In this document: positions 883 through 40,588 of the stretch, in pieces
How positions within the stretch are numbered: position 1 is the first letter of the stretch
How the letters are laid out: every line of letters begins with the position of its first letter
From: Syntrophorhabdales bacterium
Lineage (GTDB): Bacteria > Desulfobacterota > Syntrophorhabdia > Syntrophorhabdales > WCHB1-27
DNA length: 44,207 bases
Direction of reading: 5' to 3'
Assembly (NCBI GenBank): GCA_035541455.1
Contig: DATKNH010000124.1
Span: 1-44,207, forward strand
Notes under the pieces: model-generated
Told to the model about the DNA's origin: nothing
What the model saw: the letters and a program-made list of their open reading frames with translations, nothing else
The model's database searches: none
Translations under genes and position numbers: made by a program

Positions 883-2857
883 CTAGCCCAACTTCCGCAG
901 TGAGTGTAGAAGTTTTAAAAGAATGAGCAGCCTTTCTCCAAAAAGCCGAATAGTCACGACATCCATTTTCTAAAAACGAATGTAGTGGAGACCAGACTCT
1001 TGCCAGAGCCCTTTCTGTAGCGGATACTATGGGCATGTATCTACGCCGCAACAAAAGAACAAAGGGAGGAGAAACCTACGAGTACTGGTCGTTGGTCGAG
1101 TCGGTGAGATCAGCGAGAGGACCACGACAGAGGACCGTAGCGACTATCGGCAAGCTACCCGGTCTCGATCAAGAAGAAAGAATCGGTTGGGAAGAAATTC
1201 GCCGCATCGCGAGCGGCATGCCGCGAGAACCAAAGCTCTTTGAAGACGAGCAGGAGCCTCCGTCGTGGGCCACCATCGATGTGAACCGTGTCAGGGTAGA
1301 ACGCCTGCGCCATTTCGGTGATGTCTATCTGGGCCTTCTGCTGTGGAACAAGCTCGGTTTTGCTGACTTCTGCACTAAGCATCTCCCGGAGGGTCGGGAA
1401 GAGATCCCTTGGTCGGTGATGGCGTGCATCCTCGTTGTTGCCCGGTTCTGTGCTCCCTCCTCCGAATTACAGATTGCAGAGTCGTGGTATGACAAGACGG
1501 CCCTGGATGATCTTCTCGGTGTGACGGGCGACAAGATCAATGACGACAGGCTGTATCGCGCCCTCGATGTTGTTCTTCCCTACAAGGACGAGCTCTGCGC
1601 CTATCTCCAGCAACGCTACGGCGAACTCTTCGGCGCCACCTTCGACTTCCTCTTCTATGACATTACGTCTACCTATTTTGAGGGGACTGCTACGGGCAAC
1701 CTGCAGGCCAGAAGGGGCTATAGCCGGGACAGCCGCCCTGACTGCCCTCAGATCTGCATTGGCATCGTCGCAACGAAAGAAGGATTACCGCTCGCCTTTG
1801 AGATCTTCGATGGCAACCGCCCCGATGTGACCACCACCCAGGAGATGCTTGAGATCATGGAGGCAAAGTACGGCAAAGCGCACCGCATCTGGGTGCTCGA
1901 CCGAGGCATGGTGAGTGAAGACAATCTGGAATGCATGCGTATGAACGGAGCACGCTACGTGGTCGGCACGCCCAGATCACTCCTCAAGAAGTTCGAACAA
2001 CAACTCCTTGGTGAGCAATGGGAGGAAGTACGGCCCGGCGTCGAGGTGCGTCTTGTACGTTCGCTGGAAGGAACTGATGAAACGTTTGTCCTCTGCCGCT
2101 CACAGGGTCGTAAGGAAAAAGAGAACGCTATCCTGAACCGCTTTGCATCTGCTCTTGAATGTAAGCTCAACAAACTGAGAGACCGCGCTGATGCGGGGAA
2201 GCTCAGAGATAGGCAGAAGGTAGAGCGGCAGATCGGACGACTCCTCGAGCGACACAGCAGAGCAGCGTCGCTCTTTACCGTGACCGTCAGAGCAAAGAAG
2301 GACCGGCTCTCAATTGACATCACCACGCATGAGGAACGCTACGCCTGGGCATTGGAAACGGGAGGAAGCTATATCCTCCGAACCAACTGGACGGAACCTG
2401 ATCCCAAGACGCTCTGGGACACCTACATCCAGTTAACCGAAGTCGAAGATGCGTTCCGCACCGCAAAACACGATCTCGGGATGCGGCCGATCTTTCATCA
2501 AAAACAAGACCGAACCCAGGCCCATATCCTCGTCTGCTTTCTTTCGCTTGCCCTCTGGCGGACATTGCAACAGTGGATGAAAACGTGCGGGCTCGGCACT
2601 GCACCCAGAAAACTCTTGGAAGAGATGCGAGAGATCAGATCGCTGGATGTGCTCCTTCCAGCAAAAGAGAGAACCATCAGATTGCGCGTCGCCGCCTCCG
2701 CCTCACCAGAGCTCAAACTCCTGTTGCAGAGGATGAGACTCCTGCTCCCAAACAAACCAAGAATTGTTGAAAATGTAGTGGCGAAAATGGGCCGATATTT
2801 GTCGTAACACGCCGAAATTACTCGCTTCGAAATTTATAACTGCGGAAGTTGGGCTAG
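883..2857 (+). mobile_element. IS1634-like insertion sequence A (about 1.98 kb)
   Basis: The element is bounded by perfect 19-base inverted repeats: ctagcccaacttccgcagt at 883-901 and its reverse complement at 2839-2857. It holds a single 592-residue transposase. The outermost four bases are CTAG on both sides, a self-complementary word that could be either the tip of the repeat or a 4-base target duplication. Beyond it the flanks (ccga and gagc) do not match, so no longer duplication is visible. The right end lies only 9 bases beyond the stop codon of the sigma factor gene. The left end lies just past a broken mazF. The transposase is intact, so the copy may be active. Confidence 0.85.
1029..2807 (+). 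CDS. IS1634 family DDE transposase
   Basis: A 592-residue transposase of the IS4/IS1634 superfamily. The catalytic triad is readable: Asp211 in FYDITSTYFEG, Asp291 in WVLDRGM and Glu473 in VEDAFRTAK, with the Y-(2)-R-(3)-E-(6)-K-like signature of IS4-type enzymes around the last. The C-terminal block LGMRPIFHQ...AHILVCFL is typical of IS1634 transposases. The start may be ATG 1035, giving MYLRRNKR, the usual N-terminus in this family. ATG 1029 adds two residues. Lying 128-134 bases inside the left inverted repeat, it fills nearly the whole element. No frameshift or internal stop is seen. Confidence 0.9.
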   Translation: MGMYLRRNKRTKGGETYEYWSLVESVRSARGPRQRTVATIGKLPGLDQEERIGWEEIRRIASGMPREPKLFEDEQEPPSWATIDVNRVRVERLRHFGDVYLGLLLWNKLGFADFCTKHLPEGREEIPWSVMACILVVARFCAPSSELQIAESWYDKTALDDLLGVTGDKINDDRLYRALDVVLPYKDELCAYLQQRYGELFGATFDFLFYDITSTYFEGTATGNLQARRGYSRDSRPDCPQICIGIVATKEGLPLAFEIFDGNRPDVTTTQEMLEIMEAKYGKAHRIWVLDRGMVSEDNLECMRMNGARYVVGTPRSLLKKFEQQLLGEQWEEVRPGVEVRLVRSLEGTDETFVLCRSQGRKEKENAILNRFASALECKLNKLRDRADAGKLRDRQKVERQIGRLLERHSRAASLFTVTVRAKKDRLSIDITTHEERYAWALETGGSYILRTNWTEPDPKTLWDTYIQLTEVEDAFRTAKHDLGMRPIFHQKQDRTQAHILVCFLSLALWRTLQQWMKTCGLGTAPRKLLEEMREIRSLDVLLPAKERTIRLRVAASASPELKLLLQRMRLLLPNKPRIVENVVAKMGRYLS

Positions 2858-9126: not shown

Positions 9127-10110
9127 ATGCGAACGAATCTATATTTGACAGCGCTACTCGGATGCATGCTCTTGGCTGTGCTCGTAACGCCGGCAGGGAG
9201 TCAAAGCGCTTACCCGGCAAAACAAATCGACGTTCTTATCGGATATGGGCCGGGCGGGATTGTCGATGTGTCCGAACGTTTCCTTGCGGGCAAAGCCGAG
9301 AAGATCCTAGGCCAGCCCATGGTGATCACCAATAACGGTGGTGGCGGCAGTTCCGTGGCTGTGGCCATCGTAGCCACGAAGCAGCCGGATGGCTATTTTA
9401 TCGCGGGGTGCGCCAGCACGGGTCTCGTGAGAATTCCGCAATTCAGAACGGTGCCGTACAAATGGGACGACCTCACGCCGATCATGCACTTCGCAACACC
9501 CATCCTCACATCGCTCGTGGTCCGGGCTGATTCGCCCTTTAAGGCGGTGAAGGACCTGGTCGAGTACGCCAGAAAGAATCCCGGGAAAGTGACGTACAGC
9601 ACCACCGGAGTGGGATCACCCATGCACATGGCAATGGAGTACATCGCCAAACAGGAAGGGATAAAATGGACGCACGTGCCCTATCCAGGCACTATGCCCG
9701 CCTTCATGGCACTGCTCGGAAATCATGTCACCGCGCAGGCAGGAGCTGCTGAATGCGTCCCCTACATAAAGGAAGGCAAGGTCAGGCTGCTCGCCACGAT
9801 CAGTGAGAAACGCGTCAAGACCTTTCCGGATGTGCCGACCCTGCGAGAGCTCGGGTACGATACGTTTAATGAAACAGTCTTCATGTTTGCCGCTCCCAAG
9901 GGAACGCCCCAGGCAATCATAGACAAGCTGGACAACGCCTTTCACAAAAGCATGGCCGATCCCGAGTTTAACGGATTGCTCGCAAAACTGGAAATGGAGC
10001 CTTCCTACAGGAACTCGGCCGACACGAAAAAGTACCTTGAAGATGCCCACAGCCGTATCGGAAAGTTGATTCGCGAGCTGAAGATACCAAGAGAGGAAGA
10101 GAAGAAATGA
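9127..10110 (+). CDS. Bug/TctC family periplasmic solute receptor 1
   Basis: A 327-residue extracytoplasmic solute-binding protein of the tripartite tricarboxylate transporter (Bug/TctC) family. A signal peptide covers about the first 26 residues and is followed by AYPAKQIDVLIGYGPGG, the family's typical mature start. Typical internal phrases are KPDGY-like KQPDGYF, VTYSTTGVGSPMHMAMEY, KWTHVPYPGTMPA and FPDVPTLRELGYD. In this family the domain cleft binds carboxylates, including aromatic ones such as terephthalate. An in-frame ATG at 9034 is rejected because it overlaps DUF1638 and would bury the signal peptide. The stop overlaps the next paralogue as ATGA. No tctA or tctB membrane gene is nearby. 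Confidence 0.9.
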   Translation: MRTNLYLTALLGCMLLAVLVTPAGSQSAYPAKQIDVLIGYGPGGIVDVSERFLAGKAEKILGQPMVITNNGGGGSSVAVAIVATKQPDGYFIAGCASTGLVRIPQFRTVPYKWDDLTPIMHFATPILTSLVVRADSPFKAVKDLVEYARKNPGKVTYSTTGVGSPMHMAMEYIAKQEGIKWTHVPYPGTMPAFMALLGNHVTAQAGAAECVPYIKEGKVRLLATISEKRVKTFPDVPTLRELGYDTFNETVFMFAAPKGTPQAIIDKLDNAFHKSMADPEFNGLLAKLEMEPSYRNSADTKKYLEDAHSRIGKLIRELKIPREEEKK

Positions 10111-11084
10111 AACGTTTTCTCACCGTAGTAATCGTATGCCTTATTCCTGTTACCCTCGCAGGTTCGCTCTGGGGCCAGGCGCCCTATCCTGCTAAACCCA
10201 TCGAGCTCCTGATCGGCTGGGCGCCGGGCGCCACAGGGGACTTAACACACAGAATGCTCGCGAGCAAAGCCGAGAAGATACTGGGCCAACCTGTTGTTCC
10301 CTTGAATAACGGCGGCGGCAGCGGCGCGGTGGCTGTGACGCTGGGGGCCAGGAAGCCGGCCGACGGCTATTACCTCATGGGCACTTCAAGCACGGCATTG
10401 GTCAGGGTTCCGCTGTTCAAGACCGTGCCCTACAAGTGGGATGATGTTACACCCATCATGCACTTTGCTGCGCCGGTACTCACCTCGCTAGTCGTAAAAT
10501 CGGATTCCCCCTGGAAGTCTCTCAAAGAGCTTATTGAGTACGCCAAGAAGAACCCGGGGAAGGTCACCTACGCCACGTTAGGCGTCGGGTCGCCGATGCA
10601 CATGGCCATGGAGTATGTCGCCAGGCAGGAGGGTGGAATTAAATGGACCCATGTTCCTTATCAGGGGACCATGCCTGCTTTTATGGCATTGCTCGGAGGC
10701 CACGTATCGGCACAGCTTGGCTCAGGCGAATGCATCCCCTACGTGAAGGACGGTACGCTGAGACTGCTGGCAAACGTGGGTGAGCGGCGGGCCAAGAGTT
10801 TTCCGGATGTACCGACTCTCAAAGAACTGGGATACGATTACTTCAATGAAACGGTCTTTGTGATCGCCGCTCCGAAAGGAACGCCTCAGCCCATTATCGA
10901 CAAGCTTGATAAGACGTTCCATCAGACAATGGCTGACCCGGAATTCGTCAGTCTCGTAACAAAACTCGAATTTGAGCCCGTGTACAGGAACTCAGCCGAC
11001 ACCACTAAATACCTGAGAGAAGCGAACGTACGTATCGGCCGTTTGGTTCAGGAGCTTAAAATACCCAGAGAAGCAGAAAAATAA
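10107..11084 (+). CDS. Bug/TctC family periplasmic solute receptor 2
   Basis: A 325-residue paralogue of the preceding receptor, sharing long stretches by eye (GSPMHMAMEY, the KWTHVPYQGTMPAFMALLG region, FPDVPTLKELGYDYFNETVF), so it arose by tandem duplication. A signal peptide is at residues 1-23, with the mature start QAPYPAKPIELLIGWAPG. The ATGA overlap at 10107-10110 indicates co-translation with receptor 1. It should deliver a carboxylate ligand to a TctAB-type permease, but none is encoded in the window. The stop codon forms part of a long-range inverted repeat with the convergent gene's end. Confidence 0.9.
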   Translation: MKRFLTVVIVCLIPVTLAGSLWGQAPYPAKPIELLIGWAPGATGDLTHRMLASKAEKILGQPVVPLNNGGGSGAVAVTLGARKPADGYYLMGTSSTALVRVPLFKTVPYKWDDVTPIMHFAAPVLTSLVVKSDSPWKSLKELIEYAKKNPGKVTYATLGVGSPMHMAMEYVARQEGGIKWTHVPYQGTMPAFMALLGGHVSAQLGSGECIPYVKDGTLRLLANVGERRAKSFPDVPTLKELGYDYFNETVFVIAAPKGTPQPIIDKLDKTFHQTMADPEFVSLVTKLEFEPVYRNSADTTKYLREANVRIGRLVQELKIPREAEK

Positions 11085-11179
11085 TACCGATCAGCCATAA
11101 AGTGGAGACCGAGGCGCTCCCAAACTTTTCTTCCCGGGTCGCCCAACGAAGGTATGCGCTTTAGGGGTAATCGGTATTA
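11082..11179. repeat. long-range inverted repeat joining two convergent 3' ends, with a repeat-element fragment inside
   Basis: taataccgat (11082-11091) and atcggtatta (11170-11179) are perfect inverted copies. Each includes the stop codon of one of the two convergent receptor genes. Inside lie two words shared with the larger element at 14918-15046: agaccgaggcg (11106-11116) and caacgaaggtatgcgctt (11144-11161). The interval may be a diverged copy of that element acting as a bidirectional 3'-end structure. There is no clear T-run. Confidence 0.5.
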
Positions 11180-12184
11180 CTTGCCCACGTAGAGGCCGAT
11201 TTCTTTGAGTATAGGTACGCCGACTTCTTCTGCGTTGCGTATGGTCTGTCTCACGAACTCGGGTCCGCCGAACTGAGGATCTTCCCCGCCTATCTCAGGA
11301 AGCCGTTTGAACCTGGGATCGTCATAGATCTTTTTTGAGGCAGCGGTAAGATAGCTCTTTATGCTGCCAGGCGTATCCTTACGGACATAGATTGCGACGT
11401 ACGTCATCAGTTTCGCTGCGTCAGGAAAACCAAGCTCAACGATGCACGGCACGTTCGGCTGATCTGCGTACCTCTTCTCGCTGTAAAAGGCCAGCGGCCG
11501 TACCTTTCCCGCCTTGACCTGATCACTCACCGTACCATAAGGAAGACTTGCGGCCTGGATATGTCCTCCGAGCAAGGCCGATAAGGCTTCGGGACTGCCT
11601 TTGTAGGGTACATCCGTTGCTTGAACGCCCGCCTTCTTGAATATGTCAACCGCGATTATGTGGGGCGGGGTCCCCCTGCCGGAATGCGCCCAGTTCAGCT
11701 GTCCCTGATTCTTCTTTCCGTAGCTGAGAAGATCATTGAGGCTCTTCCATGGAGAGTCAGCCCGCACCATCATGGCAAGCCTCCATGCCATGAAATTGGC
11801 TATGGGCTCCAGTTCATTCGGATCGAAGGGTATCTTTTGTGTCTTGGTAGTGATGGCAAAAAACCCCTGGCCGAGAGTTACCAGTTTGTAGCCATCCGGC
11901 TTGGCGCTGATTACCTCGGCCGCAGCCAGACTTCCGCCCGCTCCAGGTTTATTTATCACGGCAATCGGCTGGCCGATGTACGTCGGCGCTATGTCTGCAA
12001 TCAGTCTGGCCATGATATCTATGGAAGCCCCTGCCGTGTAAGGACAGAGAAGCTCAATCGGCTTCACCGGGTAATCTGCCGCGCCCGTGATTGCTGCAGA
12101 AAAAATCAGGACCAGAGAGAGGAATGCTGTTTGTGCTAGGACTCGTTTCTTCGTGCTGAACCTTCGTCTCACGCTCCACCTCAA
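11177..12184 (-). CDS. Bug/TctC family periplasmic solute receptor 3
   Basis: A 335-residue receptor of the Bug/TctC family, clearly more distant from the other two. A basic N-terminus and hydrophobic core form a signal peptide ending near residue 35 (ITGAADYP), followed by VKPIELLCPYTAGASIDI. Family phrases include KPGAGGS, KPDGYKL, VPYKGSPEALSALLGGH and GKVRPLAFYSEKRY. The start codon is TTG at 12182-12184. A GTG at 12170-12172 is an alternative that shortens only the pre-sequence. It is transcribed divergently from the amidohydrolase at 12373. No transport partner is adjacent, so it is an orphan receptor here. Confidence 0.88.
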   Translation of the reverse strand: MRWSVRRRFSTKKRVLAQTAFLSLVLIFSAAITGAADYPVKPIELLCPYTAGASIDIMARLIADIAPTYIGQPIAVINKPGAGGSLAAAEVISAKPDGYKLVTLGQGFFAITTKTQKIPFDPNELEPIANFMAWRLAMMVRADSPWKSLNDLLSYGKKNQGQLNWAHSGRGTPPHIIAVDIFKKAGVQATDVPYKGSPEALSALLGGHIQAASLPYGTVSDQVKAGKVRPLAFYSEKRYADQPNVPCIVELGFPDAAKLMTYVAIYVRKDTPGSIKSYLTAASKKIYDDPRFKRLPEIGGEDPQFGGPEFVRQTIRNAEEVGVPILKEIGLYVGK

Positions 12185-12225
12185 TTGTAAAAGTTAGCCC
12201 AACAGTATCAGCGGCAACCAGCTCA

Positions 12226-12252
12226 TGTCAAGTCAATAAATTCTCCTTGACA
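12226..12252. promoter_or_regulatory. inverted repeat of two facing -35-like boxes between divergent genes
   Basis: tgtcaag (12226-12232) and cttgaca (12246-12252) are perfect inverted copies 13 bases apart. Each reads TTGACA toward the gene it faces: receptor 3 on the minus strand and the amidohydrolase on the plus strand. Minus-strand TACTGT lies 18 bases from its box. No good -10 is seen on the plus strand. The arrangement suits a divergent promoter or an operator overlapping both -35 elements. The rest of 12185-12372 shows nothing else recognisable apart from the amidohydrolase ribosome site (gaggagg). Confidence 0.35.
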
Positions 12253-12372
12253 CTGGCGGCATGGTGGTGCAAAGCTTATCGCACAGATCCGCCTTCCTGC
12301 TCTGCGTAGAGAGCCGAGCTGAAGATCGACCTATCCAGTGATGACATACTGGGAAATAGAGGAGGATACGCT

Positions 12373-13365
12373 ATGAAGATCGATATCTACACGCACGTGA
12401 TGCCCGAGCGGTACAAAACGCTCCTTTACAAGCATTCAGACAAGTTCGCCACTGAAAAAGCCGTTCAGGACAGGAGGCCTGCCTTAACCGACCATGAGAT
12501 GAGGCTGCGTATCCTGGAGGAGTTTCCTGACGTCGTTGAGGTGCTCTCCGCCACCATGCCTCCTGTCGAGGAGATCGTTGGCCCCAAGGAAGCCGTGGAA
12601 ATGGCAAAGATCTGCAACGACGAAATGGCAGAACTGGTCGCGCATAATCCCAAAAAATACATCACCGCCATAGCAAATCTTCCCCTGAATGACATGGACG
12701 CTACCCTGAAAGAGGCCGAAAGGGCAATCAAGACACTCGGCTTCAAAGGCGTACAGGTGCACACGCGCGTCCTGGGTAAGCCGTTGAGCACGGACGAAAT
12801 GATGCCCCTCTATGAGCTTATGTCAGGGTACGATCTGCCCATATGGATCCACCCGATGCGCAGCTCCAGTCAACCCGATTTCGCTGCCGAGACGGTTTCC
12901 TACAATCAGATTTTTTCAATATTCGGCTGGCCTTTTGACACAACCGCTGCGATGGTACGGCTCGTGTTCGCCGGCATCTTAGAAAAATTCCCCAATATCA
13001 AGTTCATCACCCATCATTGCGGTGCACTCGTTCCCTATTTCAGAGAAAGGATCATCGTGCATTACAATAACGGGCTGGAACGCCTGGGTGCAAAGCATTA
13101 TCCCGGCCTCACAAAACACCCGATCGAGTATCTGCGGATGTTTTATAACGACACGGCTTTGAACGGAAACCCTTCCGCGCTCAATCTGGCGCTGGAATTT
13201 TTCGGAGAAGACCATATACTCTTCGGTACGGATCTGCCATACGATATCCAGAACGGACGCCTTTCGGTCAAGCAGACTATCGATGCCATCGAGAAGATGA
13301 GCGCCTCCGATGCGTCCAAGCAGAAGATATTCGAAGGTAATGCACGGAGGCTTCTAAAACTGTGA
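12373..13365 (+). CDS. amidohydrolase-2 (ACMSD-like) family protein 1
   Basis: A 330-residue TIM-barrel metal-dependent hydrolase/decarboxylase of the amidohydrolase-2 family, which includes ACMS, gamma-resorcylate and 5-carboxyvanillate decarboxylases. The later ligand motifs are visible: IWIHP near residue 157, THHCGA near 217 and FGTDLPYD near 283. The N-terminal metal motif, usually H-x-H, reads Tyr6-Thr7-His8, so the first His is lost. A strong ribosome site (gaggaggatacgct) fixes the ATG. The paralogue at 32390 shows the same change (Phe-Thr-His), so this is a subfamily feature and not a sequencing error. A role in decarboxylating or ring-opening an aromatic acid is inferred from context. 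Confidence 0.85.
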   Translation: MKIDIYTHVMPERYKTLLYKHSDKFATEKAVQDRRPALTDHEMRLRILEEFPDVVEVLSATMPPVEEIVGPKEAVEMAKICNDEMAELVAHNPKKYITAIANLPLNDMDATLKEAERAIKTLGFKGVQVHTRVLGKPLSTDEMMPLYELMSGYDLPIWIHPMRSSSQPDFAAETVSYNQIFSIFGWPFDTTAAMVRLVFAGILEKFPNIKFITHHCGALVPYFRERIIVHYNNGLERLGAKHYPGLTKHPIEYLRMFYNDTALNGNPSALNLALEFFGEDHILFGTDLPYDIQNGRLSVKQTIDAIEKMSASDASKQKIFEGNARRLLKL

Positions 13366-14288
13366 CTCGACGGCATAATGCTACGCTGATGCGGAAACAA
13401 TTCTCCGGCTGGCTCTTTCTTCTCCTGGTCCTTTGCCTCGTTGGGAGCATTCTTGATGTAGATAGGGGCTTGGCCCAGGAAGGAAAAAGTTTTCTGTGGA
13501 AGGTGCAGTCCAAGACATCGACTCTCTATCTTCTTGGCTCAATCCATTTTCTCAAGCAGGAGAACTATCCCCTGAACCCCGTGATCGAAAAAGCATTTGC
13601 ACAGTCGAGCTATCTGGTGGTCGAGGCTGACGTCAGTGATCCGGGCAAACTCAAGATTGAAACACTGTTGCCGAAGGCACTATACCCTGACAACGACACG
13701 CTGCAGAATCACGTGTCAGCCCAGACCTACGAATTGGTCCAGAAAGAGACCGGCAAGCTCGGGCTACCTCTTGAGCTCGTGGCCAGACAGAAGCCCTGGT
13801 TTCTTGCTCTCACGTTGGAAGCGCTCGAACTCGCCCGACTGGGATTTGACCCGGCGCATGGGATCGACTCCTACTTTCTTTCTAAGGCTCAAGGTTCAAA
13901 AAAAATACTCGAACTGGAAAGTATAGACCAACAGATCAGCCTTCTGTCGGGCCTTCCTGATAAAGATCAGGAACTCTTCCTGGTTTATACGCTCAAAGAT
14001 CTCAACGTCCTGGACGAAGAAACCGCCTGCCTCGTGAAAGCCTGGTCAACCGGTAACGCAAACCAACTTGAAGCCATCATGACGAAGGCAATAAAGGAAG
14101 ACCGCAGACTGGAGCCGATCTTCAAGAGACTCCTGGAAGACCGGAACAAAGGCATGGTTTCGACCATCGAGGGCTACCTGAAGACAAAGGAATCCTACCT
14201 TGTCGTGGTGGGAGCAGGCCACCTGGTAGGTGATAGAGGTATTGTCAGGCTGCTCAAAGAGAAGGGTTATACTGTCGAGCAGTTCTGA
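13362..14288 (+). CDS. TraB/GumN family protein, exported
   Basis: A 308-residue protein of the TraB/GumN (COG3735) family, related to Tiki-type metalloproteases. Two conserved motifs are present: YLLGSIHFL near residue 58 (GxxH) and VGAGHLVGDRGIVRLL near the end. A hydrophobic signal segment lies at about residues 17-38, and LAQEGKSFLW follows a likely cleavage site. GTG 13362 overlaps the amidohydrolase stop as GTGA and has ggagg 12 bases upstream. ATG 13389 would give a more compact signal peptide and is a serious alternative. The substrate is unknown. Its coupling to the amidohydrolase is positional and may not mean a shared pathway. Confidence 0.82.
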   Translation: MTRRHNATLMRKQFSGWLFLLLVLCLVGSILDVDRGLAQEGKSFLWKVQSKTSTLYLLGSIHFLKQENYPLNPVIEKAFAQSSYLVVEADVSDPGKLKIETLLPKALYPDNDTLQNHVSAQTYELVQKETGKLGLPLELVARQKPWFLALTLEALELARLGFDPAHGIDSYFLSKAQGSKKILELESIDQQISLLSGLPDKDQELFLVYTLKDLNVLDEETACLVKAWSTGNANQLEAIMTKAIKEDRRLEPIFKRLLEDRNKGMVSTIEGYLKTKESYLVVVGAGHLVGDRGIVRLLKEKGYTVEQF

Positions 14289-14318
14289 AATTATTCTTAG
14301 GAGAGTCGAACAGAGTCC

Positions 14319-14645
14319 TTATGCGGTGATGTTGACGCGAAGCCCCTTATCGAGGGTCGAATAACGGACTTTTCCGGCTTGGTCATAGGTCGCGACGCCA
14401 GGCGACGCATGGAGAACCTTCGGCTCACCCGCTTCGCCATAGATAGTTGATCGTAGAGGCTTTGCACCGCCTCTTTCCGCCCAGCTTCCGTCCTGCGGAA
14501 CGAGTTCGATCACCTGTTCGGGAGTCGGCGTCTGAAGGTGTCCAGCTGTTTGACCGAAGAATTCATCGCGGCCTCTTGAGCGATCCCCAGCCTCTGCGAC
14601 CCCGTAACCATGAAATACGTTTAGCACTATGACATTCACGTTCAT
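14319..14645 (-). CDS. unrecognised 108-residue protein
   Basis: A 108-codon frame, starting MNVNVIVLNVFHGYG and ending DKGLRVNITA. I do not recognise it. It has no signal peptide or transmembrane helix beyond the short hydrophobic N-terminus, and no cysteines. Support for its being expressed comes from a consensus promoter (14657-14685) aimed at it. That promoter would start the transcript only about five bases before the ATG, so the message would be nearly leaderless. No ribosome site is seen. It stands alone in an otherwise gene-poor stretch. It could also be a spurious frame over a non-coding transcript. Confidence 0.35.
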   Translation of the reverse strand: MNVNVIVLNVFHGYGVAEAGDRSRGRDEFFGQTAGHLQTPTPEQVIELVPQDGSWAERGGAKPLRSTIYGEAGEPKVLHASPGVATYDQAGKVRYSTLDKGLRVNITA

Positions 14646-14656
14646 AACTACAAAGA

Positions 14657-14685
14657 ACTATACTCCCACTTTTTGAACTTGTCAA
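14657..14685 (-). promoter_or_regulatory. near-consensus sigma-70 promoter
   Basis: Minus strand: TTGACA (14680-14685), a 17-base spacer and TATAGT (14657-14662), matching eleven of twelve consensus bases. Transcription would begin near 14650, directly before the ATG of the 108-residue frame. This is the strongest promoter match I found in the window, yet it serves no recognised gene. Confidence 0.6.
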
Positions 14686-14865
14686 CCAAGGTATCTAATC
14701 GGGAAAAAAAGGCGCCTCGACCCAAGAGTAATCCGGCCCTTGCAGGACAAGGCTTTGCGCAATCTTATTCCCATGCTACACGTGTGCGCATAGACCCTAA
14801 AGAGCTAAGCCTTAGGAATTAGCATCACTCCACCGCTTTTCCTATTAGAGAGGGAACATCATGTT
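14686..14865. other. gene-free stretch
   Basis: I see no convincing frame, RNA gene or hairpin here beyond a weak cctaa/ttagg stem near 14800-14817. Together with the repeat element that follows, this separates the unrecognised ORF from the 3' end of livF. Confidence 0.5.
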
Positions 14866-14917
14866 GGCTTGGATTCAATCTCGAGACCTGGACGCAGTAT
14901 CGTAAGTCTACGTCGGC

Positions 14918-15046
14918 GTGCCGGCTTGGATTCAAGATGCAGACCGAGGCGAACCGAGGCCTTGGATACTGAAGCGTACTGCAGTACGCTGAGCAATAAC
15001 AGGGCCGAAGGGCAACGAAGGTATGCGCTTGAAGCCAAACCGGCAC
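14918..15046. repeat. 129-bp palindromic intergenic repeat element
   Basis: The ends gtgccggcttggattcaag (14918-14936) and, inverted, cttgaagccaaaccggcac (15028-15046) match in 17 of 19 positions. At the centre is a perfect 18-base palindrome, agcgtactgcagtacgct (14973-14990). Between arms and centre lie agaccgaggcg (14941-14951) and caacgaaggtatgcgctt (15013-15030), both of which recur in the receptor intergenic region at 11106-11161. The left-end word ggcttggattcaa also occurs upstream at 14866-14878, suggesting a second, truncated copy. The whole can fold into a cruciform or long RNA hairpin. It has no coding capacity, like a REP/BIME or MITE-type element. It ends a few bases before the livF stop. 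Confidence 0.65.
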
Positions 15047-15050
15047 CGCG

Positions 15051-15764
15051 TCAGCCGCCGAGGTAGGCGGATACTACATGTTCATTCTCCAGCAACTCCT
15101 CTGCCCTGCCCTCCATTGTTACCTTCCCTGTTTCCATCACGTAGCCACGGGTAGCTATTTTCAGCGCTGCCCGTGCGTTCTGCTCGATCAACAGAAGCGT
15201 AATGCCCAGTGAATTAAGCTCACGCAAAATCCTGAAAATCTCCTCAACGACAATGGGCGCGAGTCCAAGCGAAGGTTCGTCGAGCATCATCAGTTTCGGG
15301 CGGGCCATAAGGCCTCGCCCGATGGCAAGCATCTGCTGCTCGCCCCCGCTCAAGGTTCCTGCCATCTGGCTATGGCGTTGTTTGAGGATAGGGAAGAGCG
15401 AGTAGACGCGCTCCAGATCCTCGGCGATTAAGCTTTTCGAACTTTTTCTATAGTGGTGATAGGTTCCCATGCGCAGGTTATCAAACGTGGAGAGAGACTT
15501 GAAAACATCACGTCCTTCCGGTACCTGGCAGATACCGACGCGAACTATAGAGCTGGGGCTGTGCCGCGTGATGTTTTTCTGATCGAAGACTATTTTTCCC
15601 TGCCGTGAAGGCAGGATTCCGGAAATGCTCATGAGGAGAGTCGATTTACCCGCACCGTTTGCCCCCAATACGCTCACGATCTCCCCGTCTCTTACTTCTA
15701 AGGAAACCTCCTTGAGCGCCTGGATTCCGCCATAATAGACACTCAGTTTTTCTACAGACAGCAT
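15051..15764 (-). CDS. livF: branched-chain amino acid-type ABC transporter ATPase (LivF-like)
   Basis: A 237-residue ABC ATPase of the LivF group. Walker A is GANGAGKST near residue 35, the signature is LSGGEQQMLAIGRGLM near 140, Walker B is LMMLDEPSLGLAP near 160, and a switch His falls in the HVVSAY tail region. It is the last gene of the cluster, two bases after livG. With LivGHM it energises uptake of a ligand captured by the binding proteins encoded upstream. Although named for branched-chain amino acids, transporters of this family also import aromatic and dicarboxylic acids. The surrounding ligase and decarboxylase genes favour that reading here. Confidence 0.93.
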   Translation of the reverse strand: MLSVEKLSVYYGGIQALKEVSLEVRDGEIVSVLGANGAGKSTLLMSISGILPSRQGKIVFDQKNITRHSPSSIVRVGICQVPEGRDVFKSLSTFDNLRMGTYHHYRKSSKSLIAEDLERVYSLFPILKQRHSQMAGTLSGGEQQMLAIGRGLMARPKLMMLDEPSLGLAPIVVEEIFRILRELNSLGITLLLIEQNARAALKIATRGYVMETGKVTMEGRAEELLENEHVVSAYLGG

Positions 15765-15766
15765 AC

Positions 15767-16519
15767 TTACTTCCCCAGATACGCGGTAATAACTTCAGAA
15801 TTATTCCTTATCTCCGTAGGGGTGCCCTCTGCGATCAGGCTGCCATAGTTGATGACCACCACCTGATCGGAGACATGCATGACAAGACGCATATCATGCT
15901 CCACAAGGAGGACTGTGATTCCTCTCTTTTTGATGCGGAGAAGATTCTTTGCCAATTCATCCGTCTCCTTTTCATTCAGCCCCGCAGCCGGCTCATCAAA
16001 AAGGACGATCTCCGGATCAGAAGCTAAAGCTCTTGCGATTTCCATGACCCGCTGTTCGCCCATGGGAAGGCTCGTTGCAGGCGCCTCGGCACGGGCATCT
16101 AAGCCGACGAATTCCAGCTCCTCCATCGCCTTGTGCCGTGCCCTTTTCTCATCAGCGAAGCACCGGGGAAGTCTGAGCGCCGCCGAAAAGAGCCCGCTCC
16201 TGGTACGCATGTCGCAGCCGACCATCACGTTCTCAAGCACGCTCATCTCGGCAAAAGGCCGCACAATCTGGAAGGTGCGCGACAGGCCTTTCCACGCGCG
16301 CACGTGCGGGGGACATGAGGTAAGCTCTTCTCCCTTGAAAGTGATCGAACCCCTGCTAGGAGCAAGAAGGCCAGAAATCATGTTAAACGTAGTTGTTTTC
16401 CCTGCGCCATTCGGGCCTATCAGCGCCTTGATGCTGCCTTTCTCTACGGCAAAACTCAGGTCGTTCACCGCTGTGAGACGCTGGAAGAATCTGCTCAATT
16501 CCTTGATCTCGAGAATCAA
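15767..16519 (-). CDS. livG: branched-chain amino acid-type ABC transporter ATPase (LivG-like)
   Basis: A 250-residue ABC ATPase of the LivG group. Walker A is GPNGAGKTT near residue 35 and Walker B is EIVLFDEPAAGLNEKE. The C-terminus AYLGK is typical of LivG. The signature motif is degenerate (LPMGEQRVMEIARAL, where LSxGEQ is usual), which is common for this subunit. The start codon is TTG, overlapping the livM stop as TTGA (16516-16519), so translation is coupled. It forms the ATPase pair with LivF. Confidence 0.93.
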   Translation of the reverse strand: MILEIKELSRFFQRLTAVNDLSFAVEKGSIKALIGPNGAGKTTTFNMISGLLAPSRGSITFKGEELTSCPPHVRAWKGLSRTFQIVRPFAEMSVLENVMVGCDMRTRSGLFSAALRLPRCFADEKRARHKAMEELEFVGLDARAEAPATSLPMGEQRVMEIARALASDPEIVLFDEPAAGLNEKETDELAKNLLRIKKRGITVLLVEHDMRLVMHVSDQVVVINYGSLIAEGTPTEIRNNSEVITAYLGK

Positions 16520-38652: not shown

Positions 38653-40588
38653 TAGTCCGAAGTTCCTTACCTCGTAATGCAGTATTTCCTTGTGAGAGAA
38701 GGAGTTTTAGAAAAGAGGAGTTTCCGTTTACTGGCTACAGCCTGAGGAGTTCAAATGCCCGCGCTTGAAGAGGTGTGAGGTCGGTTACCCGCAAGAAAGA
38801 CGGTTGAGCGGGATCGGTACCGATCCTCACGCGATGACGGCACCGGGTGGCCAGTTCGGCGAGCAGGGTCGAGAAGCTCTGGACGGGAAGACCATCCGGG
38901 GTAAGGCCCGTCCTCTTCTTCCTCAGGGCAGAAGGAGACGCTTTCGCCGGCCGCACCGCGTCTCTCATCGTTCTTTTCTCCGGCAGTTCTTCGTCATCAA
39001 AAAGGAGCGGCGCCAGAGACTTCCGCATATGCCACTCCACGTAATAGGCGAGTAGGCAGAGAAAAATGTGGGCTTTGACGTGCGCTTCGGTCCTGTGCCA
39101 GATGGGCCGTATGAGCAGATCGAGCCCTTTTAAGCTCCGGAAGGCGCGCTCGACGTGCGCAAGGTTCTTATACGTGCGGACCGCATCCTCGGGGGAGAGG
39201 GTTTCTTGCGGTTCACTCGTGCGGATGACGTAGATGCCGTCTAAGGCTTCCTCTCGCTGGATCGACAGCTCATTCCGGGCAAAGGAGAACGTTCCCTCGC
39301 CGATCGTCACCTTGAAGTGCTTGCCCACCTTGAACCGGCCGAGCACGCCCCCCACCTTCTTGCCGATCTCGGCCTTGTCGAGCGGCGTGCGGGTGCGCCG
39401 TGTCACCTGACGGGCGATGCGAGAGAGTTCACCCTCGGTCGCGGCAAGAAGCTCTTGTCGCTTTCTCTTCCGTTCTTCCGCCAAAAGCGGATTGAAGCAG
39501 GCGATGAGCCGCTCGTCGGGATAGTCGTCGGATACGATCTCGGCAAGATCCGTCTGGTCGAAGAGCGACAGCTGAAGGCTTTCCCCCTCGACCAAGTTCC
39601 GGATGGCGCGGGAGCGCAGTGCCGAGATCCAGCCGATGCCCGGGTGGGCCTTCAGGGTATCGATCTGCGTATTCGTGAGCATGCCCCGGTCGCCGACCAA
39701 AACAAGGCGGTTCAGCCCGAAACGGTTTTTCAGTGTTTGCACCTGATCGGGAACCGTGGTGGGATCACCGGTGTTGCCGGGATAGACGCTGACGGCGACT
39801 GGACACCCTTGCTGATCGGTGAGCACTCCGTAGACGATGATCGGCTTTCCTTTCTCTCCGTCCCGGTCATGGCCGAACAGCGCCAAGGGGCAGGTCCTGC
39901 CTTCATAGTAGCTGCTCGTGACATCGTAGAGCACGGATGCTCTTTCTGCGAGGTGCTTCGAAGCCAGCTTCTTTTCAATCATCTCCTGGCGGGCAAGCAG
40001 CCAGTCCATCGCACGGTAGAGATCGTCCTCATCGGTATCGGTGCAAGAAAGCTCTTCCGCAAGCGTCGTGGTGTTTATGAGCCGCGCCGTGGCGAGTTTC
40101 GAGGAAGGATGGAGGAGACGCTCTGCCAGCATGGCGATGACGAGATCACGCTCGCGGCTTCTCTTGGATGCGATGACGCTATCAAGGCCGATTCTTCGTA
40201 TGGTTCCCAAAACCGCCTCCACGTGGCCGTGGGCCAGGGAACGTTCGATATGGAAGGCTTCTTTCGGTGCCACAGCGGTTTCACCCTTCAAAACGCGCCT
40301 GAGTGCTTCAACCTTCTCTTCCGGCCAGTCCGTGAGATTCGCAACGGTCCGCCGCTTGACCTTTTTCCCTTCACGCCACGCTTCCCTAAGCAGAACAGCC
40401 GGCCGTGAGTTGCGGTTCGGCACCACATCGATGTACATGAGCACATCATACCACCACACTACACTACTGTCAACTACTAAATGACATATTACATGGGCAC
40501 AAATGGAAGAGCCCACTTTCAAGCTTTCCGGCTACCGGCAAGGGAAAGAGACCATTTTTATCGTGATTTCACATGGAACTTCGGACTA
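38653..40588 (-). mobile_element. IS1634-like insertion sequence B (about 1.94 kb)
   Basis: Perfect 14-base inverted repeats, tagtccgaagttcc at 38653-38666 and its reverse complement at 40575-40588, enclose one transposase gene. The flanks (ttttcat and gacgtca) show no obvious target duplication. The ends are related in sequence to those of insertion sequence A (both begin TAG-C/T-CC, then AA-C/G-TTCC), fitting two members of one family. The element sits between serS and a flavoprotein gene without visibly breaking a recognised gene. A short frame, MFVIVRARSA..., runs into its left edge. Confidence 0.85.
38735..40438 (-). CDS. IS1634 family DDE transposase
   Basis: A 567-residue transposase. 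The start chosen, ATG 40436-40438 (MYIDVVPNRNSRPAVLL), is the usual N-terminus in this family. The frame is open to 40522 but that extension has no family sequence. The DDE residues are in VLYDVTSSYYEGR (Asp), LVGDRGML (Asp) and HVERAFRSLKGLDL (Glu), followed by IRPIWHR and AHIFLCLLAYYVEW. The protein is complete with no frameshift. It is clearly distinct from the transposase at 1029, sharing only motif-level similarity by eye, so the two elements are different species and not copies. Confidence 0.9.
   Translation of the reverse strand: MYIDVVPNRNSRPAVLLREAWREGKKVKRRTVANLTDWPEEKVEALRRVLKGETAVAPKEAFHIERSLAHGHVEAVLGTIRRIGLDSVIASKRSRERDLVIAMLAERLLHPSSKLATARLINTTTLAEELSCTDTDEDDLYRAMDWLLARQEMIEKKLASKHLAERASVLYDVTSSYYEGRTCPLALFGHDRDGEKGKPIIVYGVLTDQQGCPVAVSVYPGNTGDPTTVPDQVQTLKNRFGLNRLVLVGDRGMLTNTQIDTLKAHPGIGWISALRSRAIRNLVEGESLQLSLFDQTDLAEIVSDDYPDERLIACFNPLLAEERKRKRQELLAATEGELSRIARQVTRRTRTPLDKAEIGKKVGGVLGRFKVGKHFKVTIGEGTFSFARNELSIQREEALDGIYVIRTSEPQETLSPEDAVRTYKNLAHVERAFRSLKGLDLLIRPIWHRTEAHVKAHIFLCLLAYYVEWHMRKSLAPLLFDDEELPEKRTMRDAVRPAKASPSALRKKRTGLTPDGLPVQSFSTLLAELATRCRHRVRIGTDPAQPSFLRVTDLTPLQARAFELLRL

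What the first reader, a model, noticed from the sequence alone, without database searches (positions are those of the whole stretch)
14918..15046. Dispersed palindromic repeat element of about 129 bp
Imperfect 19-base terminal inverted repeats, a perfect central 18-base palindrome and internal words shared with 11106-11161 mark a repeat family, with a further truncated end at 14866-14878. It has no coding capacity and lies at gene 3' ends in both places. It could be a REP/BIME-like or MITE-like element, or encode a structured RNA.
Basis: seen in the sequence. Interest (0 to 1): 0.55.

Follow-up and report, generated by a model that had tools for sequence, protein, structure and literature searches.

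The report
Palindromic mobile element hugging stop codons
The finding is one of dozens of copies of a small, hairpin-shaped piece of DNA that carries no gene, very probably moved around the genome, and mostly sits exactly at a gene's stop codon, nearly always pointing the same way; related pieces occur in very different bacteria.

Summary
The element at 14914-15048 is a ~135-bp imperfect palindrome (folding z -6.2), one of at least 88 covariance-model matches in its own 3.9-Mb genome; 11080-11179 is another. The outer stem differs between copies, yet all 11 of its pairs show double changes. Related elements match in 31 of 60 genomes of kin (own included), 36 of 198 across the phylum (own included) and named records of several phyla.

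New here: one end lies at a gene's stop codon in 59 of 88 copies, the other end in 4 of 88; random intergenic edges 2.4%. Rfam has no match, the own genome no RAYT transposase.

Best reading: a non-autonomous miniature transposable element (MITE). In another MAG, 30 of 30 fetched near-identical copies are flanked by CTAG; in the sister genome 12 of 47 copies have the same 3 bases, all T-N-A, at both ends (3.6 expected). Such targets contain stop codons, so insertion spares the protein. No helper transposase was found. The one-way orientation is unexplained and could mean a strand-specific 3'-UTR function.

The parts
14914..15048 (+). full element, covariance-model strand; the strand read with the abutted gene is the complement
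   Evidence: cmsearch 131.1 bits, E 3.5e-29 in the whole genome; z -6.2
14918..14936 (+). left arm of the outer stem
   Evidence: inverted repeat I1, 19 nt, 89% complementary
15028..15046 (+). right arm of the outer stem; this end faces the stop codon
   Evidence: inverted repeat I1
14942..14951 (+). conserved internal-loop motif GACCGAGGCG
   Evidence: alignment A1 of 18 copies
14973..14990 (+). central hairpin, perfect 18-nt palindrome; conserved core
   Evidence: in 18 copies 97% of the cells of this helix are paired
15014..15028 (+). conserved internal-loop motif AACGAAGGTATGCGC
15051..15053 (-). stop codon (TGA) of the ABC-transporter ATPase gene 15051-15764 (livF-like by eye), 2 nt from the element's right end
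11080..11179 (+). second, shorter copy filling the gap between two convergent genes; the stop codons at 11082-11084 (+) and 11177-11179 (-) lie in its ends
   Evidence: 41.9 bits, E 1.6e-6; arms 11082-11110 and 11151-11179; stops
14866..14888 (+). partial left end of another copy
   Evidence: direct repeat D1, 83% identical

Best explanation
It is a member of a family of non-autonomous miniature transposable elements (MITEs): about 135 bp of DNA that folds into one long irregular hairpin. The outer arms may vary as long as they pair; the inner loops and the central hairpin are conserved. SHOWN: dispersed copies, paired change of the arms, and, in related elements, near-identical copies flanked by CTAG (one MAG) and a partial signal for T-N-A at both ends (sister genome). 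INFERRED: a DDE transposase, perhaps of IS5 type, moves it in trans into short targets (T-N-A, CTAG) that include stop codons; an insertion there duplicates the target, so the gene keeps its stop codon and the insertion survives. It then stays as a hairpin directly after the stop codon, where it is probably transcribed as the 3' end of the mRNA. NOT EXPLAINED: why one end faces the gene 59 times and the other 4 times.
For: At least 88 matches in the own genome. 91.8% of cells paired against 79.9% shuffled, 78 against 20 double-changed cells, all 11 outer pairs with double changes. Sister genome G001: 50 distinct matches on the 42 loci searched; median best identity of G001 copies 92.4% within G001, 87.7% to G000, so the family kept spreading or homogenising there; the same 3-mer at both ends in 12 of 47 copies, 3.6 expected: TTA 5, TGA 3, TCA 2, TAA 2. 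G060: 40 copies listed, 99-100% identical; 30 of 30 fetched copies have CTAG at both ends. Stop codons: right end 59 of 88, left 4 of 88, random intergenic edges 291 of 12230. In G060 the CTAG sites outside the element are 8 at stops, 8 in coding, 17 intergenic, so a CTAG target by itself favours stops; 17 of 30 fetched copies have a called gene's stop at one end or both (hand count). Similar targets are in print: IS1031 group 5'-TNA-3', TGA in the case shown (PMC12016507, passage); MITEPsy1 after CTAG or YTAA, thought to derive from the IS5-family ISPsy2 (PMC3189936, passages). The ABC-transporter ATPase next to the window element ends at the same codon in G001, where no element follows it.
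Against: No end repeat stands out in the own genome (best 3-mer offset 7 of 86 copies). The G001 signal is the best of many offsets tried, and only 5 of its 12 copies abut a stop; the other 7 (TTA, TCA) abut none. 13 of 59 abutted stops are TAG, which is not T-N-A. No transposase gene flanked by matching ends in the loci fetched; IS5_3 model over its cut-off in 0 of 6 genomes, weaker matches in 4. A symmetric target does not predict the orientation bias; young G001 copies (nearest copy >= 94% identical) show it too, 9 right against 2 left in 21, 3 of them without right flank (hand count). In G060, stops lie at the sense-5' end in 12 of 30 and at the other end in 9 of 30. An open frame cut by the element would also seem to end at its edge, so some abutted stops may be truncated genes; this was checked against an unoccupied relative only for the gene next to the window element. 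No clean empty site was obtained: the G001 spacer there is too diverged to align.
Confidence: 0.55

Rival explanations
1. A functional 3'-UTR structured RNA. The hairpin right after the stop codon protects the mRNA end, stops read-through or affects termination, and selection keeps it there in one orientation. Mobility is only how it spread.
For: Right/left polarity 59 against 4 of 88 in the own genome, 24 against 4 of 41 in G001, 28 against 3 of 58 in loci found by the core pattern, but no clear polarity in the recent G060 burst, 12 against 9 of 30. Orthologous positions occupied in both genomes with arm changes that look paired by eye: L033/L323, L036/L325, L035/L333. Two conserved G-U positions on the model strand (56 of 85 and 59 of 73 cells).
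Against: The outer stem shows little strand preference (G-U 45, A-C 31), and without the position that holds 59 G-U the inner stems have 66 G-U against 83 A-C. The strand with the conserved wobbles is antisense to the abutted gene. Young G001 copies are already polarised. No Rfam match. Next to the window element's gene, G001 has none.
Confidence: 0.25
2. A REP/BIME-like repeat moved by a RAYT tyrosine transposase.
For: Palindromic, intergenic, sometimes in inverted pairs (L035, L047, L044), mosaic variants.
Against: No Y1_Tnp in the own genome, while the same search rings in 5 of 14 control genomes. Far longer than a REP; no GTAG tag at the ends (sequence, by eye).
Confidence: 0.05
3. A folded single-strand recombination site like an integron attC: hairpin after a stop codon, conserved internal loops, variable arms, one strand recognised.
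For: Same position and polarity relative to the gene (attC features recalled); conserved wobble on the strand opposite to the coding strand.
Against: No attC end boxes (GTTRRRY, recalled) at the element's ends by eye; the abutted ATPase gene sits in a stretch that is syntenic with G001, not in a cassette array; G060 copies are flanked by CTAG on both sides.
Confidence: 0.05
4. The conserved core inserts into hairpins that were there before (terminators, other repeats), so the variable outer arms are target, not element.
For: Arms differ between families with one core.
Against: In the own genome the arms share a consensus; in G060 arms and core move as one near-identical unit.
Confidence: 0.06

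Closest known systems
ERIC / RU-1 and other enterobacterial intergenic repeat units
   Same: RU-1 is 127 bp, intergenic, described as MITE-like (abstract of PMC2759123 in the listing; that RU-1 is ERIC and an imperfect palindrome is recalled)
   Different: Other sequence and hosts; no one-way abutment to stop codons known to me (recalled)
MITEPsy1 of Pseudomonas syringae (IS5-type MITE)
   Same: Small non-coding element, CTAG or YTAA target duplicated, TIR with CTGAAAAAGCC, like the end of one related element found here (L177)
   Different: 100 nt; whether it holds the conserved core was not tested; two of six copies interrupt loci (PMC3189936, passages)
REP/BIME: GTAG- and CGTC-tagged repeats (PMC3733652)
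   Same: Palindromic, mostly downstream of genes, dimers, many phyla (abstract and passages)
   Different: 20-40 bp with an unpaired tag at one end; CGTC stems of 8-9 bp; no exact stop-codon junction in the passages seen
Coxiella QMITE2 (PMC5896051)
   Same: Stable stem structure; in one strain a copy lies right after a stop codon (passages)
   Different: A single case in the passages seen, not a rule; another family

Membership tests
MITE | short, non-coding, many dispersed copies | tested here: met
   at least 88 matches, most of ~135 bp
MITE | terminal inverted repeats | tested here: met
   19-nt arms, 89% complementary; outer helix 91% paired in 18 copies
MITE | target site duplication | tested here: inconclusive
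   CTAG 30 of 30 in G060; same 3-mer 12 of 47 vs 3.6 expected in G001; no clear signal in G000
MITE | ends shared with an autonomous element | tested here: not met
   no transposase gene flanked by them in loci L285-L322; L292 holds a partial copy within about 0.7 kb of a weak PF13701 match, not flanking it. Only three Pfam families and one NCBIfam model were sought, in 10, 6, 6 and 6 genomes
IS5/IS1031-derived element | IS5-family transposase present in the genome | tested here: not met
   NF033580 over its cut-off in 0 of 6 genomes, none at all in G000. Other IS5 models were not searched in genomes. G060 does hold one IS5_4-type IS with TAG...CTA ends, other TIR sequence
IS5/IS1031-derived element | TNA target | tested here: inconclusive
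   12 of 12 matching G001 3-mers are TNA; 13 of 59 abutted stops in G000 are TAG
REP/BIME | 20-40 bp unit with an unpaired tag | tested here: not met
   ~135 bp unit
REP/BIME | RAYT transposase | tested here: not met
   0 matches in the own genome, which is 97% complete
Rfam RNA family | match to a curated model | tested here: not met
integron attC site | R boxes and an integron integrase | not tested
   ends inspected by eye only; integrase not searched

The most novel reading that the evidence does not exclude
A bacterial superfamily of structured elements, spread over several phyla, that is inserted or kept exactly at stop codons in one fixed orientation, so that many genes of a genome get the same kind of hairpin tail directly after translation ends: a mobile 3'-UTR module with a strand-specific role in mRNA fate or termination.
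Probability: 0.25. Interest if true: 0.8.

Novelty: new variant of a known kind. Interest (0 to 1): 0.6.

Why it matters
If the one-way stop-codon junction is caused by selection, it shows how selfish DNA becomes a common 3'-UTR part; if it is caused by insertion, it is a mobile element that uses stop codons as safe sites. Named records such as Geobacter sp. AOG1 and Sporomusa sp. KB1, whose titles do not mark them as MAGs, hold related copies, so both ideas may be testable in culture.

Tried and rejected
REP/RAYT: no Y1_Tnp in the own genome. Known RNA: Rfam at relaxed E on 10000-16000 of the window gave two weak matches away from the elements; at gathering threshold on 16 loci it gave four tRNAs and a riboswitch, none on an element. 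Plasmid searches with five elements gave no match. Helper transposases: PF13701, PF01609, PF13358 and NF033580; the IS ends found do not match the own element's ends. A larger mobile unit: the gene-side flanks of G001 copies share no sequence; on the other side only some pairs of copies match; that part of this comes from neighbouring elements is my inference. A first gene call for G060 gave doubtful frames and was replaced. All gene calls are by my own codon-usage scripts, not by a published caller. Paper searches for palindromic elements or MITEs at stop codons showed no such rule in the listings; two listings were cut (20 of 37 and 20 of 109 papers).

Full report
What is there. The window element spans 14914-15048 by covariance model: 19-nt arms, an 18-nt perfect central palindrome, and two conserved internal-loop motifs between them. 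It folds far better than shuffles on both strands. A second copy, 11080-11179, fills the gap between two convergent genes; its fold is weaker (z -3.2 and -2.7).

Family. Blast gave 40 matches in the own genome, 40 of 70 candidates being scored. Eighteen full copies out of the 28 loci at hand were aligned; the other ten are shorter, mosaic or lack the motif. RNAalifold finds one long hairpin, with 20 of 34 pairs showing double changes. For a structure that I completed by hand (40 pairs), 91.8% of cells pair (shuffles 79.9%), 78 cells are double changes (shuffles 20.2), and partners slid by 1-3 columns pair in 30-36%. The structure was taken from these same sequences, which favours the paired percentage. 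The model R1 finds 88 matches at E <= 0.01 with 150 of 1130 candidates scored. On the fetched loci there were 97 matches; I dropped 6 opposite-strand shadows and 3 duplicates of overlapping loci and used the remaining 88.

Spread. 31 of 60 genomes of kin, the own included, match at E <= 0.001; 36 of 198 genomes of the phylum sample, the own included, at E <= 1e-4; both with stricter filters. I gave the model 80 of the 118 loci and all 7 viral ones: 70 matches at E <= 0.01 in 64 of the 87 loci, 2 of the 7 viral ones included. Titles name Deltaproteobacteria, Geobacter, Sporomusa, Nitrospira, Clostridium, Acidobacteria, Phycisphaerae and others. The pattern fixed the core, so only the rest is independent evidence: arms complementary (score >= 12) in 55 of 61 distinct instances against 16 of 183 swapped pairs; CGTTG upstream in 28 of 61 (4.4% of random windows); GCCT[TCA]G downstream in 37 of 61 (5.4%). 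The named records with the best scores are Syntrophobacterales MAG contigs, so the window probably comes from a relative (inference).

Position. Taking the strand opposite to the model as sense, the element starts at or within a few bases of a stop codon: right end 59 of 88 copies (-9 to +8 bases), left end 4 of 88, random intergenic edges 291 of 12230. Thirty copies have the stop as the first three bases of the model match, 8 are shifted by one base, 7 start just after it; the window copy starts 2 bases after it. Stops used: TGA 26, TAA 20, TAG 13 of 59. In G001: right 24, left 4 of 41 copies with flanks. In the pattern-found loci: right 28, left 3 of 58, random positions 171 of 3500, by open frames of 80 codons only and with several loci from one MAG. 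In G001 4 of 50 copies face a gene start within 12 bases with the same end. An open frame cut by the element could also seem to end at its edge; in the own genome only 3 of 88 copies lie inside a called gene, and the ATPase gene beside the window element is not truncated, but the others were not checked.

Mobility. G060, the MAG of locus L133 (K_DeepCast_65m_m2_035), lists 40 copies, all 99-100% identical; only 40 of 257 candidates were scored, and the 40 further rows are the same places on the other strand. All 30 fetched copies have CTAG at both ends. CTAG as duplication and TA inside CTAG cannot be told apart. Stops of called genes lie at the sense-5' end in 12 and at the other end in 9 of 30, 17 of 30 at either (union counted by hand); among CTAG sites outside the element 8 are stops, 17 intergenic, 8 coding. 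So a target that contains a stop codon explains part of the abutment. In G001 the two ends share a 3-mer in 12 of 47 copies (3.6 expected; the best of many offsets tried): TTA 5, TGA 3, TCA 2, TAA 2. Only 5 of these 12 abut a stop. G000 shows no such signal.

History. Flanking genes show positions occupied in both G000 and G001; I aligned 12 pairings of 11 G000 copies. At L033/L323, L036/L325 and L035:1501/L333:2258 the arms differ by changes that look paired (by eye) at the same gene end. Other pairings align poorly (for example 74 of 155 and 74 of 162 bases). At two positions, window 11080 / L117 and L083 / L336, the elements point opposite ways, by inversion or by separate insertions. Beside the window element's gene, G001 has none. 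Paired changes can come from selection for pairing, from template-switch repair of palindromes, or from replacement by another copy; these data do not separate them.

Strand test. In the outer stem, G-U and A-C mismatches are 45 and 31: little strand preference, which fits a DNA palindrome at least as well as a strand-specific RNA. Two positions keep G-U on the model strand, the strand opposite to the abutted gene; without the one in the inner stems these have 66 G-U against 83 A-C.

Known relatives. The IS1031 group of IS5 prefers 5'-TNA-3' (PMC12016507, passage); MITEPsy1 uses CTAG or YTAA (PMC3189936, passages). No IS5_3 transposase over its cut-off in 6 genomes of the order and no transposase gene flanked by matching ends in the loci fetched. 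Descent from an IS5-type element is therefore a guess.

Verdict. A real, wide-spread MITE-like palindromic family; the stop-codon junction with fixed polarity is the new and unexplained part.

Noticed in passing
window 883-2857 and 38653-40588: Two IS1634-family insertion sequences with inverted ends CTAGCCCAACTTCCGCAGT and TAGTCCGAAGTTCC; the first has CTAG at both ends, like the G060 element.
   Followed up: partly
L035, L047, L044 (own genome), L333 (G001): Inverted pairs of the element about 40-125 bp apart, gene-facing ends outward; the L035 pair is shared with G001.
   Followed up: partly
L061 (G025), 1501-1887: Three copies of the element in direct tandem.
   Followed up: no
L053, L056, L058, L103, L117: Longer mosaic copies whose central hairpin is replaced or extended by a CCGCGGGTGGC / GGGTACCCGC hairpin block.
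   Followed up: no
G060:C167 (L295): IS5_4-type insertion sequence with ends TAGCAGGTCGCTGAAGAA...CTA, similar to the ends of Nitrospira and other elements of the superfamily; a candidate helper for those.
   Followed up: partly
L292 (G063), about 640-920: Partial copy with the core and one CCTGCATCTCTCAC end near a weak PF13701 transposase match.
   Followed up: partly
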